From the NCBI RefSeq assembly GCF_000317515.1, contig NC_019738.1:4552001-4616000 (forward strand): a DNA stretch of 64,000 bases, given 5' to 3'. The first letter of the stretch is position 1. Every line of letters begins with the position of its first letter. Shown in pieces: positions 40,290 through 49,409 of this stretch. Source of the stretch: Allocoleopsis franciscana PCC 7113 (GTDB lineage Bacteria; Cyanobacteriota; Cyanobacteriia; Cyanobacteriales; Coleofasciculaceae). The notes under the pieces are model-generated. The model did not search any database. It worked only from the letters and a program-made list of their open reading frames with translations, and was not told the origin of the DNA. The translations under genes were made by a program, and so were the position numbers.

Positions 40290-42116
40290 TTACACATAGC
40301 TGATGTTGAGAGTGGTTGCATCTTGAACGATACCAACCAGATCGTAGCCAGCAGAGTAGCTATAGGAGTAGATGTAGGTATCTGTCGCACTGGTACCGCC
40401 GTAGTTGGCATAGCCAAGAACATAGTTGCTAGAGTTACCAGACAGTTGGATTTTGTCGCCTTCGGAGTAGGAGTAGTCCATCACGACAGCGTAGCTAGAA
40501 TAACCATACAAGGAAGCATCTTGATAGTAAGCACCGTAGGAATCACCGAGAACGTAGGTATCAGCATCAGTGTACCCGTAGTTGTAACCGCCGGTTTTAC
40601 CATAGAGGTAGTCCATTTCCGTAGCACCACCGCCATAGGCATTCACTGTGTCATTACCATAACCACCAACTACAGTGTCATTGCCGTAGCCACCCAGTAG
40701 ATAGTCGTTGCCGTACTCACCGTAAACCAGATCGTTGCCAGCACCGGCAGAGAGATAGTCGTCGCCGTAGTAACCGTAGACAGTATCGTTACCACTGCCA
40801 CCGTAAACTGTATCGTTACCGTAGTCAGCATCGATGTAGTTGCTGTAGCTATTGCCGTAGATGACGTTGTCGAGGCTGTTCCCGTAGCCAGAGTAGGCTG
40901 TTCCCGTCAGGTAGAGATTTTCTACATTGCTACCTAGGGTGTAGCTAACGGAAGAAGAGACCCAATCATTCGTGCCTTCTGATGCATACTCGTAGACGGT
41001 GTCATAGATACTATCTACCACATAGGTGTCGTTGCCACTGCCACCATACATTGCGTCATAGCCAGTGCCACCATCGATGTAGTCATCGCCGTAGCCACCG
41101 TAGACGGTATCATTGCCGTACTCACCATAAAGGCTATCGTTGCCAGATTCACCATAAAGGCTATCGTTGCCATAGTAACCGTAAACAGTATCGTTACCAC
41201 TGCCACCATAGACAGTATCGTTACCGTAGCCACCATCGAGGTAGTTGTCGTAGGTATTGCCGTAAATGTAGTTGTCAAGGCTGTTGCCCACACCATAGTA
41301 GGCTGTTCCATACACGTAGAGATTCTCGACATTGCTACCTAGGCTGTAACTGACAGAAGAATAGACCCAATCACTAGTACCTTCACCGGCGTACTCGTTG
41401 ACCGTGTCATAAGAGCTGTCTACCATATAGAGGTCGTTGCCTATGCCACCATACATCGCATCATAGCCAGTGCCACCATCAATGTAATCATCGCCGTAGC
41501 CACCGTAGACGGTATCATCGCCATACTCACCATAAAGGCTATCGTTACCCGATTCGCCATAAAGGCTATCGTTGCCGTAGTAACCGTAGACAGTATCGTT
41601 GCCACTGCCACCGTAAACCGTATCGTTGCCGTAGCCACCATCGAGGTAGTTGTCGTAGGTATTGCCGTAGATGTAGTTGTCAAGGCTGTTGCCTACACCA
41701 TAGTAGGCTGTTCCATACACGTAGAGATTCTCGACATTACTACCTAGGCTGTAACTGACAGAAGAATAGACCCAATCATTAGTGCCTTCACCGGCGTACT
41801 CGTAGACCATGTCATAAGCGCTGTCTACCATATAGAGGTCATTGCCTGTGCCACCATACATCGTGTCATAGCCCGTGCCACCATCGATGTAGTCATCACC
41901 AGCACCACCATCAATATAGTCGTTACCACCTTTACCATAAAGATCATCATCGCCGCCCATGCCATATAAGATGTCATAGTACGCACCACCCGATAGGGTG
42001 TCGCTGCTACCATAACCCAGTGCGTAGAGATTGGTATAGTACGACGGGTAATAGTAATTATCCGTTAAGTCGATAGAATTGCTTGCTTCCGTGCCGTAAT
42101 AATAGTACCAAGCCAT
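40290..42116 (-). CDS. Tyrosine-rich RTX (haemolysin-type calcium-binding repeat) protein
   Basis: A 608-residue protein dominated by nonapeptides related to GGxGxDxUx, many in the variant form YGxYGNDxL/V (YGGSGNDTVYGYYGNDSLYGESGNDSLYGEYG...). These alternate with blocks of the form VENLYVYGTAYYGVGNSLDNYIYGN. RTX repeats fold as Ca-binding beta-rolls once outside the cell. There is no Sec signal peptide, as expected for type I secretion; no T1SS genes are in the window. Tyr is extraordinarily frequent, including YYYYG at the start. The central part is a 405-bp tandem repeat. It ends in a non-repeat domain of about 90 residues that may hold the secretion signal. Confidence 0.9.
   Translation of the reverse strand: MAWYYYYGTEASNSIDLTDNYYYPSYYTNLYALGYGSSDTLSGGAYYDILYGMGGDDDLYGKGGNDYIDGGAGDDYIDGGTGYDTMYGGTGNDLYMVDSAYDMVYEYAGEGTNDWVYSSVSYSLGSNVENLYVYGTAYYGVGNSLDNYIYGNTYDNYLDGGYGNDTVYGGSGNDTVYGYYGNDSLYGESGNDSLYGEYGDDTVYGGYGDDYIDGGTGYDAMYGGIGNDLYMVDSSYDTVNEYAGEGTSDWVYSSVSYSLGSNVENLYVYGTAYYGVGNSLDNYIYGNTYDNYLDGGYGNDTVYGGSGNDTVYGYYGNDSLYGESGNDSLYGEYGNDTVYGGYGDDYIDGGTGYDAMYGGSGNDTYVVDSIYDTVYEYASEGTNDWVSSSVSYTLGSNVENLYLTGTAYSGYGNSLDNVIYGNSYSNYIDADYGNDTVYGGSGNDTVYGYYGDDYLSAGAGNDLVYGEYGNDYLLGGYGNDTVVGGYGNDTVNAYGGGATEMDYLYGKTGGYNYGYTDADTYVLGDSYGAYYQDASLYGYSSYAVVMDYSYSEGDKIQLSGNSSNYVLGYANYGGTSATDTYIYSYSYSAGYDLVGIVQDATTLNISYV
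40896..42000. repeat. 405-bp tandem repeat in the RTX gene
   Basis: Landmark sequence GTAGGCTGTTCC recurs at about 40892, 41297 and 41702, a period of 405 bp (135 codons). The two copies at 41000-41800 are nearly identical; the third, at lower coordinates, is more diverged. Each unit encodes one VENL block plus about eight RTX nonapeptides. Confidence 0.85.
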
Positions 42117-42660: not shown

Positions 42661-42819
42661 ATGAACGACTTTAATAAAAGTGTTGGTGAAGGTAAATCAA
42701 TATCAACCTTTCCCTGGATGCAGGAACAATCAAGAAGACTAAATCGTTTACTGGAATTGGCACTCTTCTCAACACAATCGGCAGTAGCAAAACTTAAGGA
42801 GCGATCGCTCAATGAATAA
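42661..42819 (+). CDS. 52-residue ORF overlapping the sigma-factor start
   Basis: An ATG at 42661, preceded by AAGGAAG at short spacing, opens a 52-codon frame (MNDFNKSVGEGKSISTFPWM, then a helical QSRRLNRLLELALFSTQSAVAKLKERS) that stops at 42817-42819. The stop overlaps the ATG of the sigma-factor gene (42812) in the arrangement ATGAATAA, typical of translational coupling. No family is recognised. It may be a leader peptide or a small regulator of the sigma factor. Confidence 0.5.
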   Translation: MNDFNKSVGEGKSISTFPWMQEQSRRLNRLLELALFSTQSAVAKLKERSLNE

Positions 42820-43447
42820 ACTGGAGGAACGGATGGACTCATTGGTTGCAGAAGCCTGTAAACATCCACCAGGAAGTGCTGCGCGTCAGAGAAACCTAAC
42901 AAAGATTATTCGCGTCATTAGCTCCAAGCTTTGGCGAGAGAATACCCCTTACTATCAAGACGCCTTGCAACAGACCTGGGTCTATTTCTGCCAAAACATC
43001 TGCGAAGGCAATACAGGTAGAGCTTATGACCCGGAGCGGGGTAGTATCGTCACCTGGTTAAATTTTTATCTGAAGAAACGACTCCACGATTTTTACACAA
43101 AGCAGATCCAAGATGGAAACAACATTGTTTCCCCAAAATCTGACGACTCAGCCGATAACTCTGACCCCCTGGAGAATATTGCTTCTGAACCCGACGTTCC
43201 TCCCCTACTCGAACAGGTTAAACAATGGGTTGAAGACGATGCGGACGGAGAATTAAGGAGTATCTACATTGCCAACCGCAAAGATGTAACCGCCCAAGTC
43301 CTAATTTTGCGCCGCTTGCCCCCAGAAACCAGTTGGAAAGATCTCGCCACAGAATTTAATCTATCAGTCTCGACGTTGAGTAGTTTTTACCAGCGACAAT
43401 GTCTACCCCGGCTGCGTAAATTTGGTGAATCAGAGGGATATCTATAG
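42812..43447 (+). CDS. Sigma-70 family (ECF-like) RNA polymerase sigma factor
   Basis: A 211-residue protein. Region 2-like sequence (NTPYYQDALQQTWVYFCQNICEG, PERGSIVTWLNFYLKKRLHDFYTKQ) and a C-terminal region 4 helix-turn-helix (SWKDLATEFNLSVSTLSSFYQRQCLPRLRKF) are recognisable. The linker between them is acidic and Ser-rich (KSDDSADNSDPLENIA). It heads a group with DUF1822, CHAT-CHASE2 and DUF928 genes, an association I recall as typical of cyanobacteria. The 52-codon ORF overlaps its start. Likely targets and any anti-sigma factor are unknown. Confidence 0.8.
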   Translation: MNKLEERMDSLVAEACKHPPGSAARQRNLTKIIRVISSKLWRENTPYYQDALQQTWVYFCQNICEGNTGRAYDPERGSIVTWLNFYLKKRLHDFYTKQIQDGNNIVSPKSDDSADNSDPLENIASEPDVPPLLEQVKQWVEDDADGELRSIYIANRKDVTAQVLILRRLPPETSWKDLATEFNLSVSTLSSFYQRQCLPRLRKFGESEGYL

Positions 43448-43529
43448 TAGAGGGTGTAAATAAAAGCGCATCTACGTCTTGTGGCTGCTGTACGTAACCC
43501 CAAAATTTACTAATACTAAGGATAATCCC

Positions 43530-44555
43530 ATGACATACCCCACCCACGAGCTAGACGACTTGTCCTTATCACTACCTATCACTCAGACAGCACTGCGTAC
43601 TGCACAACAGTTTGCCAATGAACAACCCACACCCCAAAAAGCTGAACAGGTTCGGCTCAATACTCTAGCGGTGTGTGCGGTTAATGATTACTTACAGATG
43701 ATTGGCATACCCACCAACCTAGAAGCAAGCGATAGTTGGAATCCCGTGTTGCGCCTGTGTGCAGATGTCGCTGACTTAGAAGTCACAGGAATCGGTCGTT
43801 TGGAATGTCGCTCTCATCGAAGTGGTCAATCTAGCTGCTATGTTCCCCCAGAAGTTTGGTTAGATCGAGTGGGTTATATTGCGGTTGAAATCGATGAGCT
43901 CTCACTTGAGGCAACCGTGTTGGGTTTTACTGAAACTGTCACTGACGAAGAATTACCGATTAGGCAGCTAAAACCCATCGACGATTTAATCGATGTCCTA
44001 AATCCGCTAGAGGTAGAAAAGCCCAAGTCGATTCCTGCCCTTGCCAAGACACGAGTGAAGCTGAACCAATGGTTAACCCAGATGTTCGAGCAAGGTTGGG
44101 AAACCGTTGAATCATTATTGGCTCCCACGGAACCTGAACTTGCCTTTAATTTCCGTGGCTTTTCAGATTCCATCATGGACGGTAATTGGCGTAGCGCTCC
44201 AGACTCAGTGCTGGACGAACCCATCGTCTCTGATGCAATCATCAGTCGCGCTAAACTCATCGACTTAGGAATCCAGTTAGCGGGTTACCCGGTGGCGTTA
44301 GTGGTTAAACTCCAACCCGAATCCGAACACAAAACCTATATCCTGCTTCAGCTTCATCCCACAGGTGGGCAACAGTATCTACCCCCCCACCTACAACTCA
44401 CCGTACTCGATGAATTTGGGTCAATTTTTCTGGAAGCCCAAGCCAGAAGTGCGGATAATTATATACAGCTCCAGTTTAGTGGTCTACCTGGGGAACCATT
44501 TAGCGTTAAAGTGGCTCTCGGTGATGCAAGTGTTACAGAAGACTTTGTAATATGA
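43530..44555 (+). CDS. DUF1822 family protein
   Basis: 341 residues from the ATG at 43530, which has AAGGA seven bases upstream. The N-terminal LPITQTALRTAQQFANEQPTPQKAEQVRLNTLAVCAVNDYLQMIGIPTNLEASDSWNP is the hallmark of cyanobacterial DUF1822 proteins. The C-terminal part (about 250-341) is beta-rich (LVVKLQPESEHKTYILLQLHPT, YLPPHLQLTVLDEFGSIFLEAQARSADNYIQLQFSG) and resembles an Ig-like or carbohydrate-like sandwich. There is no membrane segment or signal peptide. It lies between the sigma-factor and CHAT-CHASE2 genes. Function unknown; an anti-sigma or protease-substrate role is speculation. Confidence 0.85.
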   Translation: MTYPTHELDDLSLSLPITQTALRTAQQFANEQPTPQKAEQVRLNTLAVCAVNDYLQMIGIPTNLEASDSWNPVLRLCADVADLEVTGIGRLECRSHRSGQSSCYVPPEVWLDRVGYIAVEIDELSLEATVLGFTETVTDEELPIRQLKPIDDLIDVLNPLEVEKPKSIPALAKTRVKLNQWLTQMFEQGWETVESLLAPTEPELAFNFRGFSDSIMDGNWRSAPDSVLDEPIVSDAIISRAKLIDLGIQLAGYPVALVVKLQPESEHKTYILLQLHPTGGQQYLPPHLQLTVLDEFGSIFLEAQARSADNYIQLQFSGLPGEPFSVKVALGDASVTEDFVI

Positions 44556-44925
44556 GTGTGATCATTCCCAACTGTCTGCCCTCCTTTCTCTGGAACAGGG
44601 AGTTACTCCCAAAAGCATCCCTAATCCACCGTTCACCCTTAAGGCTGTGCTTCTTGGGATCTGTGAAAGCTCCGATTTCTCTCTTCTCTCCTTGTTAACA
44701 TCTCCCCAATGAGCCAGTAATACCGTCTGAACAGAACCGGATAAAACTGGAATTCATGAATGTTTGTTAAGGGTTAGACAATCCGTAAACCTCCTTGAGT
44801 CAGTTCCAAGCTAGTGGGAAGTGCATAACCCAACAATGATTGGAGATAGAACTTCTAGGAGCAAACCACTAGAGTCACCTCGATTGCCGAAGTAATGCCC
44901 TTAACTTCGATCTGGAGAAGCCGTC
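44556..44925. other. Intergenic stretch inside the sigma/CHASE2 cluster
   Basis: About 370 bp between the DUF1822 and CHAT-CHASE2 genes with no ORF. It may hold a second promoter. At 44804-44821 the sequence matches the terminal hairpin part of the CRISPR repeat of this window at 16 of 18 positions. No terminator was found. Confidence 0.35.
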
Positions 44926-47280
44926 ATGGGTAAGTTAGTCGTCCTAAAGCTAGGGGATGGTAGCTTTGAACAGGGATTTCCTGTTACCTTGCAAATGGGA
45001 GAGGATGAACGTCCCCCCTGTTTGGAAATCATCGGTAAGCTGCCACCAATTCCGGAAATTCCTCAATCCTATAAAACTTGGTCTACGACTTATCGCGATT
45101 TGGGAGGGCCTTCCCGACTCGAAGCCCCTGCTGCCCAACGCACCCATTTTTCCAGCATTGAAAGTTGCTGTAGTGCTGCCCAAATTTTACGCGATCGCCT
45201 GAACAATTGGCTCTACTCGGAACCGTTTCGCCCTATCCGAGAAAAATTACTCGAACAATTGATGCCGTCTGATGAAATCCGGCTGATTATTCAAACGAAC
45301 GATATTTGGTTAAAGCGACTTCCCTGGCATCTGTGGGATTTTTGCGATCGCTACCCCAAAGCTGAAATTGCCTTAAGTCCACTGGGTTTTCCTCCTCACG
45401 AAACCAACCTAACCTCTCATACTCAAGTCAAAATCTTAGCTATTCTGGGTAATAGTAAAGAGATTAATATCCAAGCAGATCGGTTGTTACTCGAACAATT
45501 ACCTAATGCCGAAATCCGTTTTTTGGTAGAACCCCAACGCCATGAATTCAGTGAAGAACTGTGGAATCAAGAATGGGATATTCTCTTTTTCGCAGGGCAT
45601 AGTTCCAGTAATTGTAATGGAGAAACAGGTCGAATATATCTCAATCAAACTGATAGTTTGACCTTTACTGAGTTAAAATTTGCTGTTAAAAAAGCCGTAG
45701 AACGAGGCTTAAAAATTGCTATTTTCAATTCTTGTGATGGCTTGGGATTAGCTAAAGATTTAGTCGATTTGAATATTCCGCAAGTCGTTGTCATGCGGGA
45801 ACCGGTGCCTGACCGCGTCTCCCAAGAATTTTTAAAGTACTTTTTAAATGCATTTTCTAAAGGTGAATCATTCTATCTCGCCGTGCGAGAGGCAAGAGAA
45901 CGCTTACAGGGATGGGAAGATCGATTTCCTTGTGCGACTTGGTTACCGCTGATTTGTCAGAATCCTGCTGTTGTGCCACCGACTTGGCGAGATTTATATG
46001 TGGATGACGATGACAACGACCATGACAACGACCATGACAACGACCATGACAAGGATGATGACAAACGCCCTCCACCGCCTCCGCCCGTTTTGCGGTGTAG
46101 CCTGCGGACTGTGTTACTCATCAGTGTGAGCATCACCTCCCTATTTTTGGGAATTCGACACAAGGGACTCCTGCAACCCTTAGAATTATCAGCGTTTGAC
46201 TGGATGATGCAAATCAGACCCGCCGAACCCCCTGATTCGCGGCTTTTGGTCGTCACGGTCACGGAAGATGATATTAAAGCTCAGGGAAATGAGTTTAGGC
46301 GTGGGTCACTCTCCGATCGCACGTTAGCACGACTGTTAGCGAAACTCGAATCCTATCAACCCAGAGTGATTGGTTTAGATATCTATCGGGATTTCCCTGT
46401 AGAAGCCAAGTATCCAGAGTTAGCCAAATATCTCAGAGACAGTCAACGCTTCATTGCTGTGTGCGAAGCCAGTACAGACCCTAGCGACCCGGCGATTGAA
46501 CCGCCGCCAGAAGTCCCCAAGGGCAACTTGGGCTTAAGTGATGTGGCGATCGATTCCGGTGGCATTGTCCGTCGTCATCTTCTGGCGATGACCCCATCTC
46601 CTGCCTCTGCTTGCAAGCCCTACTACACCCTCAGCACTCAGTTAGCATTTCGCTACCTAGAAACACAGGGCATCTCGCGTCAATTGACCCCAGACGGGTT
46701 CTTAAAACTGGGCAAAGTGGTGTTTAATCCCCTAGAAGCCCATAGCAATGGCTACCAAGGTACCGATGCCTGGGGTCACCAAGTCCTGCTCAATTATCGC
46801 TTCTACCGTTCTCCTGAAGATTTTGCCGGACAAGTCAGCGTCACCCAGGTTCTGAACGATCAGCTCAATCCTGACGCTGTCAAAGGCCGGGTTGTTCTGA
46901 TTGGTGTTACAGCGCCCAGCGCCAAAGATTTTTTTCTCACACCTTACGGTCAAAGAATCCCAGGTGTTGTCGTTCATGCCCAGCAAGTGAGTCAGATTCT
47001 CAGTGCTGTTCTTGATGGGCGACCCCTTTTGTGGGTTTGGCCTGGGTGGGGAGATGCCCTGTGGATTTGGGGGTGGTCGTTGGTTGGTGGTCTAATTTCT
47101 TGGCGCTTTTTCAAAGGACTGCGCTGGGTGGTGGTGATGGGTGCGATTACCATTTTGTACGGGCTTAGCTACGTACTGTTCCTGCTGGGAGGGTGGATTC
47201 CTCTGGTTCCGGCAATTCTGGTTGTGGTATCGACCAGTGGCGGTGTTTTGGCTTACACCACCTGGCAAGCCCGAAAGTAA
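44926..47280 (+). CDS. CHAT protease-like domain fused to a CHASE2 sensor
   Basis: A 784-residue protein. Residues about 100-355 form a CHAT (caspase-like) domain with a His in FFAGHSSS (H225) and a Cys in FNSCDGLGLA (C270), the expected catalytic dyad. A linker of DNDH repeats (about 360-383) and a proline run lead to a membrane helix (about 392-412). A CHASE2 extracytoplasmic sensor follows (ALDWMMQIRP-like SAFDWMMQIRPAEPPD, then GLDIYRDFP, NLGLSDVAIDSGGIVRRH, GRVVLIGVTAPSAKDFFLTPY), and three terminal helices. Inferred topology: protease in the cytoplasm, sensor in the periplasm. The gene sits 24 bp before a DUF928 gene. No kinase or cyclase output is present, so CHAT appears to be the output. 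Confidence 0.88.
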   Translation: MGKLVVLKLGDGSFEQGFPVTLQMGEDERPPCLEIIGKLPPIPEIPQSYKTWSTTYRDLGGPSRLEAPAAQRTHFSSIESCCSAAQILRDRLNNWLYSEPFRPIREKLLEQLMPSDEIRLIIQTNDIWLKRLPWHLWDFCDRYPKAEIALSPLGFPPHETNLTSHTQVKILAILGNSKEINIQADRLLLEQLPNAEIRFLVEPQRHEFSEELWNQEWDILFFAGHSSSNCNGETGRIYLNQTDSLTFTELKFAVKKAVERGLKIAIFNSCDGLGLAKDLVDLNIPQVVVMREPVPDRVSQEFLKYFLNAFSKGESFYLAVREARERLQGWEDRFPCATWLPLICQNPAVVPPTWRDLYVDDDDNDHDNDHDNDHDKDDDKRPPPPPPVLRCSLRTVLLISVSITSLFLGIRHKGLLQPLELSAFDWMMQIRPAEPPDSRLLVVTVTEDDIKAQGNEFRRGSLSDRTLARLLAKLESYQPRVIGLDIYRDFPVEAKYPELAKYLRDSQRFIAVCEASTDPSDPAIEPPPEVPKGNLGLSDVAIDSGGIVRRHLLAMTPSPASACKPYYTLSTQLAFRYLETQGISRQLTPDGFLKLGKVVFNPLEAHSNGYQGTDAWGHQVLLNYRFYRSPEDFAGQVSVTQVLNDQLNPDAVKGRVVLIGVTAPSAKDFFLTPYGQRIPGVVVHAQQVSQILSAVLDGRPLLWVWPGWGDALWIWGWSLVGGLISWRFFKGLRWVVVMGAITILYGLSYVLFLLGGWIPLVPAILVVVSTSGGVLAYTTWQARK

Positions 47281-47304
47281 CCTTCTACACCTGATTCATT
47301 CATC

Positions 47305-48213
47305 ATGATTAACAAAAAGTTATCTCATCTCCCCAAAACCCTAGCGATGGGTTTGACTGTTGTTGGAGTGTATAGCCATCTGCCACTACCCACCCAGGCG
47401 ACAACTGCACCAACCCCATCGACTTTATCGGTTGTTTCAACAGCCTCGTCTGCGGCGAAAACCCAACCCTCCTTCCTCCGGTTCCAACTTGCTCAGACAC
47501 CCGGACAACTCGCCAGTCGCAGCGCAGGGGCACCATTTAAGACCACACCCTTGCTCAAAGACAGAGGCGCACCCGCACCCGGTAAACGAGTGGGTGGAGC
47601 CAGCCGGGGTAGTTGTCCAAGAGCCAGCAAGAATCTCACCGCTTTGGTGCCTGTGATTCCAACTCTTCCTACTGACTCTGTGTTGGGCTTAACCTTTGCT
47701 GAGCATCCCACCTTGTGGTTTTATGTTCCCTATTCCTTAACAGCCACACGCCCTGTTGAGTTCATCCTGTTAGATGACAAAGGTACGGAACTTTACAGAA
47801 CCTTGCTATCGGAGTCGGGCACCGCGCCTGGAGTCATGGGCTTCAAGATTCCAGAAACAGTGGCACCCCTGGCGGTTAACAAGCGCTATAAGTGGTACCT
47901 GACCGTTTTTTGCGATGCGAATGAGCGTAGTGATTTTAGGTCTGTGGATGGCTGGGTACAACGGGTTGCCCTCGACCCCAAACTCCAACAGACGTTAGAG
48001 CACGCAAACCCCCAACAGAAGGCTGTTCTTTATACCCAAGCCGGTGTCTGGCACGAGGCTGTAACCACTCTTGCCCAAATGCATCGCCAGAATCCCAACA
48101 ATGCTATCCTGCAACAGCAGTGGCAAGAATTAATGCAATTGATTGATTTAGGTGCAATTGCTCCGGAACCCATTACCTCAATGCTTACTCCTAAGAAATC
48201 AGCCCCAGATTAA
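47305..48213 (+). CDS. DUF928 family secreted protein, copy 1
   Basis: A 302-residue protein with a signal peptide (MINKKLSHLPKTLAMGLTVVGVYS, cleavage near PTQAT). The DUF928 core follows: DRGAPAPGKRVGGASRGSCP, LTALVPV, SVLGLTFAEHPTLWFYVPYSL, RPVEFILLDDKGTELYRTLL, GVMGFKIPETVAPLAVNKRYKWYLTVFC and GWVQRVALDPKLQQTL. The C-terminal helices (QQKAVLYTQAGVWHEAVTTLAQMHRQNP) are also typical. It is tightly linked to the CHAT-CHASE2 gene (24-bp gap), so co-expression and a partnership with the CHASE2 sensor in the periplasm are likely. Confidence 0.88.
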   Translation: MINKKLSHLPKTLAMGLTVVGVYSHLPLPTQATTAPTPSTLSVVSTASSAAKTQPSFLRFQLAQTPGQLASRSAGAPFKTTPLLKDRGAPAPGKRVGGASRGSCPRASKNLTALVPVIPTLPTDSVLGLTFAEHPTLWFYVPYSLTATRPVEFILLDDKGTELYRTLLSESGTAPGVMGFKIPETVAPLAVNKRYKWYLTVFCDANERSDFRSVDGWVQRVALDPKLQQTLEHANPQQKAVLYTQAGVWHEAVTTLAQMHRQNPNNAILQQQWQELMQLIDLGAIAPEPITSMLTPKKSAPD

Positions 48214-48272
48214 TCTCACTCTTGTTATCGAACGAAGCTGTTACAAGCTCATTATTTTGAGCTTTCACCCAG

Positions 48273-48370
48273 GGCGGTTGGGTGCCTCTTGTCCCGGCAG
48301 CCCTGGTTTTAGTGTCTACTAGTGAAAGTCTCTTAACTTAGAACTTAGACCACTGACCAGCCCGACGCCT
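48273..48370 (+). pseudogene. Remnant of a second CHASE2 gene 3' end
   Basis: The frame starting at 48273 reads GGWVPLVPAALVLVSTSES, which aligns with GGWIPLVPAILVVVSTSGG at the C-terminus of the CHAT-CHASE2 protein upstream. The non-coding sequence after it (GCCCGA...TACCTTCTACAC and ATGATTAACAAA) also matches what follows the intact CHASE2 gene. This is the decayed 3' tail of a duplicated CHASE2 gene left in front of the second DUF928 gene. Confidence 0.85.
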
Positions 48371-48395
48371 ACCTTCTACACTTTACTAGTTGATT

Positions 48396-49409
48396 ATGAT
48401 TAACAAAACATCATCCGAACGACAGAAAAGCTCAACGCTTAGCTGGGCTACCTCTTGGGCATTTGCTCTGATCGTTGCTGGGGCGTATGCGAGTATTCCT
48501 CGACAAAGCCTTGCCACTCCTGTACAAACCCAATCGACCCCGGTCGTCTCGACAGTAACGCCGACTCCGGTTGAGGCAACTCCACCCTCTTGTGTGAAAC
48601 TACAACTGGCTCAGCTTGAAAAACAACAGGTTCAGCGAAGTACACCCCAGGGTGATTCTCGCCCTGGTGGAGATGTTCTTGCTCAGAATCCACCTCAAAA
48701 CCCTCCAAAAGACCGAGGCGCACCTGCACCAGGGCAACGGACAGGTGGGGCGACGCGTGGAAGGTGTCCATCTGCCAGCAAGCCTCTTACGGCTTTGGTG
48801 CCGATTATTTCAGCCTCTTCGGATAAGAGTCAACACCCAGTTCTCGCCAGCACTCCCACCGGGTCAGTTTTGGGTTTAACCGTCGTCTCCCATCCAACGT
48901 TTTGGTTTTATGTTCCTTATTCCATCACGTCTGAACGTCCCGTTGAGTTTATCCTCAAGGATGATCGGGACAACATCATTTATCAAACGTTGTTATCCGA
49001 GTCGGCAACTGCGCCCGGTGTAGTCGGTTTCAAGCTTCCTAATACAGTGAAACCCCTGGAGGTCAACAAACGGTATAACTGGTTCCTCACTATCGCTTGT
49101 ACTCCACCATCATCGATCTCTAGCGATCAACAAGAGCCGGTCAAGATCTTTGTTTCAGGCTGGGTAGAACGGGTGACTCTTGATCCCTCACTCCAACGGG
49201 AGTTAGACAAAGCGACACCCCAACAGCAGGCTCTTCTTTATGCCAAAGGCGGCATTTGGTACGAGGCTGTAACCAATCTGGCTGAGCTACGTCGTCAAAA
49301 ACCAAACGATGTCACCCTAAAGGCAGAATGGGCTAAATTGTTGCGATCGATTAACTTAGAGGCGATCGCATCTGAACCGATTACCTCCATGCTGACTCCG
49401 AAAAAATAA
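48396..49409 (+). CDS. DUF928 family secreted protein, copy 2
   Basis: 337 residues from the ATG at 48396 (an in-frame TTG at 48390 is also possible). It has a signal peptide (SWATSWAFALIVAGAYASIPRQSLA) and the same DUF928 core as copy 1: DRGAPAPGQRTGGATRGRCP, LTALVPI, SVLGLTVVSHPTFWFYVPYS, RPVEFILKDDRDN and VVGFKLPNTVKPLEVNKRYNWFLTIAC. The two copies are clear paralogues with an extra Gln/Asn/Pro-rich stretch here (about 80-110). Preceding remnant CHASE2 sequence shows it arose with a duplicated CHASE2-DUF928 unit. Confidence 0.87.
   Translation: MINKTSSERQKSSTLSWATSWAFALIVAGAYASIPRQSLATPVQTQSTPVVSTVTPTPVEATPPSCVKLQLAQLEKQQVQRSTPQGDSRPGGDVLAQNPPQNPPKDRGAPAPGQRTGGATRGRCPSASKPLTALVPIISASSDKSQHPVLASTPTGSVLGLTVVSHPTFWFYVPYSITSERPVEFILKDDRDNIIYQTLLSESATAPGVVGFKLPNTVKPLEVNKRYNWFLTIACTPPSSISSDQQEPVKIFVSGWVERVTLDPSLQRELDKATPQQQALLYAKGGIWYEAVTNLAELRRQKPNDVTLKAEWAKLLRSINLEAIASEPITSMLTPKK

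What the first reader, a model, noticed from the sequence alone, without database searches (positions are those of the whole stretch)
42661..49409. Sigma factor - DUF1822 - CHAT/CHASE2 - DUF928 module: a candidate envelope-sensing protease system
Seen: one strand carries a small ORF overlapping the sigma-factor start, DUF1822, a protein with a CHAT dyad (H225, C270) plus a membrane-anchored CHASE2 domain, and two secreted DUF928 proteins. Known: CHASE2 is an extracytoplasmic sensor usually tied to kinases, cyclases or Ser/Thr kinases; CHAT domains are caspase-like peptidases. Inferred: ligand or DUF928 protein binding to CHASE2 activates cytoplasmic CHAT, which cleaves a partner (perhaps DUF1822 or the sigma-interacting small peptide) and so releases the sigma factor.
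Basis: partly seen in the sequence, partly recalled or inferred. Interest (0 to 1): 0.78.

Follow-up and report, generated by a model that had tools for sequence, protein, structure and literature searches.

The report
Protease-linked sigma switch in cyanobacteria
This is a cyanobacterial gene set whose conserved layout suggests that a membrane sensor with a caspase-like protease controls a transcription (sigma) factor by cutting its partner protein; the core set was already described in 2021, but here a likely cut site and a secreted partner of the sensor are added.

Summary
The five main genes are real and correctly placed; the sixth element, the small overlapping ORF, is not a gene. The order sigma / DUF1822 / EACC2-CHAT(-CHASE2) / DUF928 is strongly conserved: of 62 DUF1822 loci, 50 have a sigma-type gene just upstream and 39 an EACC2-CHAT gene just downstream. 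The dyad H225/C270 is invariant. The core (EACC2-caspase, ECF sigma, DUF1822, CHASE2 as one variable tail) was published in 2021 (eLife 10:e70394), so this is a member of a known kind. Three points were not found in the papers searched. (1) DUF928 genes cluster with CHASE2 genes whatever the output, so DUF928 is probably the receptor's secreted partner. (2) DUF1822 is two domains joined by a disordered linker with a conserved AFxF-Arg-Ser/Gly motif, the best candidate cleavage site. (3) In a distant small-genome family the DUF1822 N-domain heads a predicted one-TM protein encoded beside a sigma gene in 12 of 13 genomes compared: the layout of a membrane anti-sigma factor. Best mechanism: DUF1822 restrains sigma; a signal at CHASE2 activates CHAT, which cuts the DUF1822 linker. 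Binding, inhibition and cleavage are inferred, not shown.

The parts
42812..43447 (+). ECF-like sigma factor (short class, 211 aa)
   Evidence: relatives match sigma70-ECF/SigK models to E 1e-10 and Sigma70_r4_2; window member alone only E 0.003. Upstream of DUF1822 in most loci.
42796..42811 (+). Ribosome-binding region of the sigma gene: AAGGAG 42796-42801 overlapping the HIP1 octamer GCGATCGC 42801-42808
   Evidence: read directly; explains the 3' end of the supposed small ORF.
42661..42819 (+). Supposed small ORF: not a gene (5' leader of sigma)
   Evidence: frame broken in sister species, no coding signature; no significant homologue outside the genus.
43530..44555 (+). DUF1822 protein, 341 aa: proposed sigma-binding regulator
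   Evidence: PF08852; sigma upstream in 50 of 62 loci; model, pLDDT 86.8.
43551..44018 (+). DUF1822 N-terminal alpha/beta domain (res 8-163), proposed sigma-binding part
   Evidence: the same domain heads one-TM proteins next to sigma genes in family f24.
44061..44120 (+). Conserved W...W helix (res 178-197, LxQWLxxxFxxGWxxxExL)
   Evidence: W181 and W190 invariant.
44139..44159 (+). Linker motif LAFNFRG (res 204-210; R209 = 44154-44156): candidate CHAT cleavage site
   Evidence: pLDDT < 50, yet the Arg is kept in 91% of 45 relatives (Lys in a few others); motif 23-fold enriched over other proteins.
44232..44552 (+). DUF1822 C-terminal Ig-like beta-sandwich (res 235-341)
   Evidence: best Z 7.9, i.e. 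a common fold only.
44926..47280 (+). Membrane-anchored receptor protease EACC2-CHAT-CHASE2, 784 aa
44926..45390 (+). N-terminal EACC2-type domain (res 1-155)
   Evidence: conserved N-terminal to CHAT in 40 proteins; name by architecture from PMC8195603.
45427..45957 (+). CHAT protease domain (res 168-344); His225 = 45598-45600, Cys270 = 45733-45735
   Evidence: dyad invariant in 40/40 and 39/39.
46099..47253 (+). TM 392-410, CHASE2 405-723, TMs 735-753 and 758-776
   Evidence: PF05226; hydropathy.
47305..48213 (+). DUF928 protein 1, N-terminal hydrophobic segment (likely secreted, not tested with a signal-peptide program); proposed CHASE2 partner
   Evidence: linkage to CHASE2.
48390..49409 (+). 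DUF928 protein 2
   Evidence: second copy also in the sister species (L110).

Best explanation
It is a membrane-to-transcription signalling module. A secreted DUF928 protein and the extracytoplasmic CHASE2 domain form the sensor. The signal crosses the membrane to the cytoplasmic EACC2-CHAT part of the same protein, a caspase-like Cys/His protease. DUF1822 binds the ECF-like sigma factor through its N-terminal domain and holds it inactive. The active protease cuts DUF1822 after a conserved Arg (R209) in the disordered linker between its two domains, and sigma is released to change gene expression. Shown: gene order, intact dyad, two-domain DUF1822 with a conserved linker motif, sigma linkage of DUF1822 in two very different contexts, DUF928-CHASE2 linkage. 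Inferred: binding, inhibition, cleavage, ligand, direction of the switch.
For: Order conserved in 62 DUF1822 loci: sigma-type gene within 700 bp upstream, same strand, in 50; EACC2-CHAT downstream in 39; independently in named, annotated plasmids (Trichormus variabilis ATCC 29413 plasmid C: sigma / DUF1822 / CHAT; sigma / DUF1822 also in Pseudanabaena and Planktothrix). Dyad invariant. DUF1822 also occurs with sigma and no adjacent EACC2-CHAT (19 of 62), and in family f24 its N-domain alone begins a protein with one strong predicted TM and, in two of three examined, a TonB-like C-terminus, with a single strong sigma match downstream on the same strand in 12 of 13 genomes compared: DUF1822-N is a sigma partner. 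A read-through model of sigma + DUF1822 has pTM 0.70 (567 aa) against 0.55 for DUF1822 alone, as expected if the two dock; the Arg motif stays disordered in it (res 439-460 below 50). The linker Arg is 91% conserved, above the 90th percentile of the whole protein. Precedents: Craspase, where a CHAT protease cuts the two-domain sigma inhibitor Csx30 (PMC10028731); HetF-PatU3 in Anabaena (PMC12288457).
Against: No cleavage or binding was measured. The linker Arg-Ser/Gly also occurs in DUF1822 proteins without a neighbouring EACC2-CHAT, so it need not be the CHAT site, and several long-class or HEAT-inserted DUF1822s lack a clean motif. Csx30 is cut in a loop with no essential residues, so CHAT sites need not be conserved motifs. 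The read-through model has an artificial linker and no interface score was available. The 370-bp gap between DUF1822 and the protease gene leaves co-transcription open. 11 of 34 CHASE2-bearing EACC2-CHAT genes have no intact DUF928 beside them (in one of these it is split by a transposase).
Confidence: 0.5

Rival explanations
1. Auto-activation route (published proposal): the caspase/CHAT domain cuts its own protein on sensing, and sigma and DUF1822 act downstream as output or adaptor; DUF1822 is not the substrate.
For: Proposed by Kaur et al. 2021 (PMC8195603); variable C-terminal sensor parts of EACC2-CHAT proteins.
Against: The DUF1822 linker has the hallmarks of a substrate; the A[FYM]xFR motif is rare in EACC2-CHAT proteins (2 of 59) and absent from the window's, though self-cleavage could use another site.
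Confidence: 0.2
2. Docking, not cutting: the linker Arg motif is a binding motif and EACC2-CHAT acts as a receptor-controlled scaffold that takes DUF1822 away from sigma.
For: A similar Arg motif is kept in DUF1822s without a neighbouring EACC2-CHAT.
Against: The protease dyad is invariant, which a pure scaffold would not need; the motif stays disordered in the model with sigma.
Confidence: 0.15
3. DUF1822 is a positive co-factor of a diverged sigma (helps it fold or bind RNA polymerase), and cleavage switches the response off.
For: The sigma family is very diverged; all linkage data fit either sign.
Against: The one-TM DUF1822-N proteins beside sigma genes have the layout of membrane anti-sigma factors.
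Confidence: 0.15

Closest known systems
EACC2-caspase / ECF sigma / DUF1822 neighbourhoods (Kaur et al. 2021, eLife 10:e70394)
   Same: Constant N-terminal alpha+beta domain plus caspase-type domain, variable C-terminus including CHASE2, ECF sigma and DUF1822 genes beside it.
   Different: DUF928, the linker motif and the distant DUF1822-N/one-TM/sigma pairs were not seen in the passages read; the paper calls DUF1822 a TPR protein, while the window member is modelled as an alpha/beta domain plus a beta-sandwich with no TPR.
Craspase (type III-E CRISPR): Csx29 (TPR-CHAT), Csx30, CASP-sigma
   Same: CHAT protease, two-domain partner with flexible linker, ECF-type sigma, encoded together; proteolysis controls sigma.
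   Different: The trigger is RNA, not a membrane receptor; the DUF1822 profile has no sequence match to any PDB chain, so this is an analogy, not shared membership.
HetF-PatU3-HetZ of Anabaena
   Same: Cyanobacterial CHAT-type protein proposed to degrade an inhibitor of a transcription regulator; weak NCBIfam HetF hit in the CHAT region.
   Different: HetF hit 27 bits against a cut-off of 1200; no sigma, DUF1822 or CHASE2 in that pathway.
RseA/DegS and FecR-type membrane anti-sigma systems
   Same: Envelope signal, membrane protein, release of an ECF sigma; the f24 DUF1822-N proteins have this layout.
   Different: Here protease and sensor are one protein and the sigma partner (window) is soluble. 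Comparison rests on general knowledge and PMC10028731.

Membership tests
[quoted passage not shown]
   conserved N-terminal domain plus CHAT in 40 proteins with invariant His/Cys. The EACC2 name rests on architecture; no EACC2 profile was available.
EACC2-caspase / ECF sigma / DUF1822 system | ECF sigma and DUF1822 genes in the same neighbourhood | tested here: met
EACC2-caspase / ECF sigma / DUF1822 system | Variable C-terminal sensor such as CHASE2 | tested here: met
   other relatives lack CHASE2.
ECF sigma factor | Sigma-70 region 2 and region 4 | tested here: inconclusive
   Window member alone E 0.003; family members to E 1e-10; helices compatible with regions 2 and 4 in the model; sigma was not fold-searched alone.
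CHAT protease | Catalytic His and Cys | tested here: met
CHAT protease | Proteolytic activity | not testable with these tools
   Needs biochemistry.
Anti-sigma factor (DUF1822) | Encoded next to its sigma | tested here: met
Anti-sigma factor (DUF1822) | Binds and inhibits sigma | not testable with these tools
   The pTM rise in the read-through model is indirect.
Craspase (Csx29-Csx30-CASP-sigma) | DUF1822 homologous to Csx30; linkage to Cas7-11 | tested here: inconclusive
   No PDB sequence hit; Cas genes were not searched systematically.

The most novel reading that the evidence does not exclude
A widespread cyanobacterial one-protein receptor-protease (DUF928/CHASE2 sensor outside, EACC2-CHAT inside) that releases a sigma factor by a single cut after Arg in the linker of a DUF1822 anti-sigma: a caspase-type counterpart of RseA/DegS, built by adding a cytoplasmic protease to an older DUF1822-sigma pair that in a distant branch is itself a membrane anti-sigma.
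Probability: 0.4. Interest if true: 0.75.

Novelty: new member of a known kind. Interest (0 to 1): 0.5.

Why it matters
The 2021 paper predicted these neighbourhoods but left open what the caspase cuts and what DUF1822 does. The data here give a single residue to mutate (R209), a soluble two-domain substrate candidate, a sigma-binding domain candidate supported by a distant architecture, and a secreted partner for CHASE2, for which no ligand is known here. If right, many cyanobacteria carry several caspase-controlled sigma switches, some on plasmids.

Tried and rejected
Small ORF as a regulatory peptide: rejected. Rfam elements in the window: none at gathering thresholds. Promoter/terminator scans: at or below chance, so no operon evidence. 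PADLOC: only a marginal effector hit to the TM region; PHROGs: none. PDB by sequence for DUF1822: none; for the protease: nothing meaningful. HetF identity: score far below the cut-off. PNAS 2022 HetF/PatU3 paper not held. A duplication in the window's DUF1822 linker was suspected from the alignment, but no DNA repeat was found. SigJ as the long-class sigma was considered; no sequence link could be made.
Full report
WHAT IS THERE. The window lies in an 8-Mb genome of a cyanobacterium (DUF1822 carriers named are all cyanobacteria). On the + strand: a 211-aa sigma-like protein (42812-43447), DUF1822 (43530-44555), a 784-aa protein with CHAT and CHASE2 (44926-47280) and two DUF928 proteins (47305-48213, 48390-49409). 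Gaps are 82, 370, 24 and 176 bp. The sigma gene is very diverged: alone it matches only TIGR02937 at E 0.003, but relatives of the same family match ECF sigma models to E 1e-10. The small overlapping ORF is not a gene: in the sister species its frame is broken and changes ignore codon position.

CONSERVATION. DUF1822 was sought in 146 genomes of the phylum and the neighbourhoods of 62 DUF1822 genes, mostly the best-scoring ones, were read. 50 have a sigma-type gene within 700 bp upstream on the same strand. These belong to two classes, the short one of the window and a long one (about 390-550 aa; 13 of 16 examined match Sigma70_r4_2). 39 have EACC2-CHAT directly downstream. The long-class profile was built from genes chosen for being upstream of DUF1822, so its count is partly circular; the Pfam hits are the independent check. 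In the window's own family the same order holds (those loci were chosen by their sigma gene). Annotated plasmids give a named, independent check: sigma / DUF1822 / CHAT on Trichormus variabilis ATCC 29413 plasmid C and sigma / DUF1822 on Pseudanabaena and Planktothrix plasmids.

DUF928 GOES WITH CHASE2. Among 54 EACC2-CHAT genes, DUF928 lies beside 23 of 34 with CHASE2 and 0 of 20 without (Fisher p 3e-7; loci are related, so p is indicative). In the window's genome 11 of 15 DUF928 genes lie within 3 kb of a CHASE2 domain (chance about 0.014 each). Of six CHASE2 proteins outside this module that have such a neighbour and were scanned, five end in an adenylate/guanylate cyclase domain and one has no other recognised domain. 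So DUF928 is tied to the receptor, not to the sigma output. One CHASE2/DUF928 cluster was noted before in Nostoc (PMC5587647).

DUF1822. The model (pLDDT 86.8) shows an alpha/beta N-domain, a helix with two invariant Trp, a disordered linker (204-217 below 50) and an Ig-like sandwich. In the linker sits a conserved motif, typically A[FY]xFR followed by Ser or Gly: Arg 91% among 45 relatives, information content 3.81 against a 90th percentile of 3.61 for the protein. The aligner placed the window's Arg column at R221 because the window has a local insertion; by motif it is R209. Lys replaces Arg in a few relatives; long-class proteins carry AAGAR-S or similar. The short-class motif is 23 times commoner per residue in DUF1822 than in unrelated neighbours.

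A DISTANT CONTEXT. In family f24 (1.6-2.3 Mb genomes of the same phylum, organism not named) the best DUF1822 matches cover about the first 170 of 370 profile positions, i.e. the N-domain. In the three loci read, it lies at the start of a ~970-1080 aa protein with one strong TM in the C-terminal third; two have a TonB-like C-terminus, and a further gene begins 37-66 bp downstream that matches Sigma70_r4 in the two scanned. A search with that sigma found one strong hit in each of 20 genomes; in 12 of the 13 whose DUF1822 position was listed it lies downstream on the same strand, where the long frame should end (compared by eye). In L130 Pfam did not reach DUF1822 at 0.01; only the genome search did. 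This links the N-domain to sigma without CHAT or CHASE2.

MODELLING SIGMA WITH DUF1822. Complexes cannot be folded here, so the sister-species genes, which share a frame, were read through their stops (read as Gly) as one 567-aa chain with about 30 linker residues. This is a modelling device, not a claim about the organism. pTM was 0.70 against 0.55 for DUF1822 alone. If sigma and DUF1822 were mutually unoriented a lower value would be expected. No coordinates or interface scores were available, so this is indirect. The Arg motif (res 440-444 there) stays disordered.

MECHANISM. Most likely: DUF1822 binds sigma by its N-domain and restrains it; the DUF928/CHASE2 sensor activates CHAT; CHAT cuts the linker. 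Every biochemical step is inferred. Precedents are Craspase and HetF-PatU3.

NOVELTY. The core neighbourhood and the idea of caspase-linked signalling to an ECF sigma are in Kaur et al. 2021. The additions here are the DUF928-CHASE2 linkage, the linker motif, the f24 architecture and the removal of the small ORF. They were not found in the papers searched, a library that lacks most subscription journals.

Noticed in passing
L130 4890-8744, L131 5432-8957, L132 5108-8920: Family f24: DUF1822 N-domain fused to a long acidic region, one TM and (in two) a TonB-like C-terminus, with a sigma-type gene directly downstream; looks like a membrane anti-sigma/sigma pair, about one per genome.
   Followed up: partly
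window 40290-42116 (- strand): RTX calcium-binding repeat protein (608 aa, PF00353) next to the module; a hemolysin-type calcium-binding protein also lies near the sigma/DUF1822/CHAT set on Trichormus variabilis plasmid C (L136).
   Followed up: no
L122 12393 (G000:C1 575395-576033): The genome holds a second sigma paralogue (65% identical) with no DUF1822 or EACC2-CHAT in the stretch read.
   Followed up: no
L089, L091, L092, L094: Separate CHAT proteins (TPR-CHAT in L091, TPS-CHAT in L089) next to DUF928 and CHASE2 genes, so CHAT and CHASE2/DUF928 associate outside the sigma module too.
   Followed up: partly
L044 11519-12934: A DUF928 gene beside an EACC2-CHAT-CHASE2 gene is split by what looks like a transposase gene.
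   Followed up: no
window 44556-44925: 370-bp gap between DUF1822 and the protease gene, of nearly the same length in the sister species (L110); no promoter above chance.
   Followed up: no
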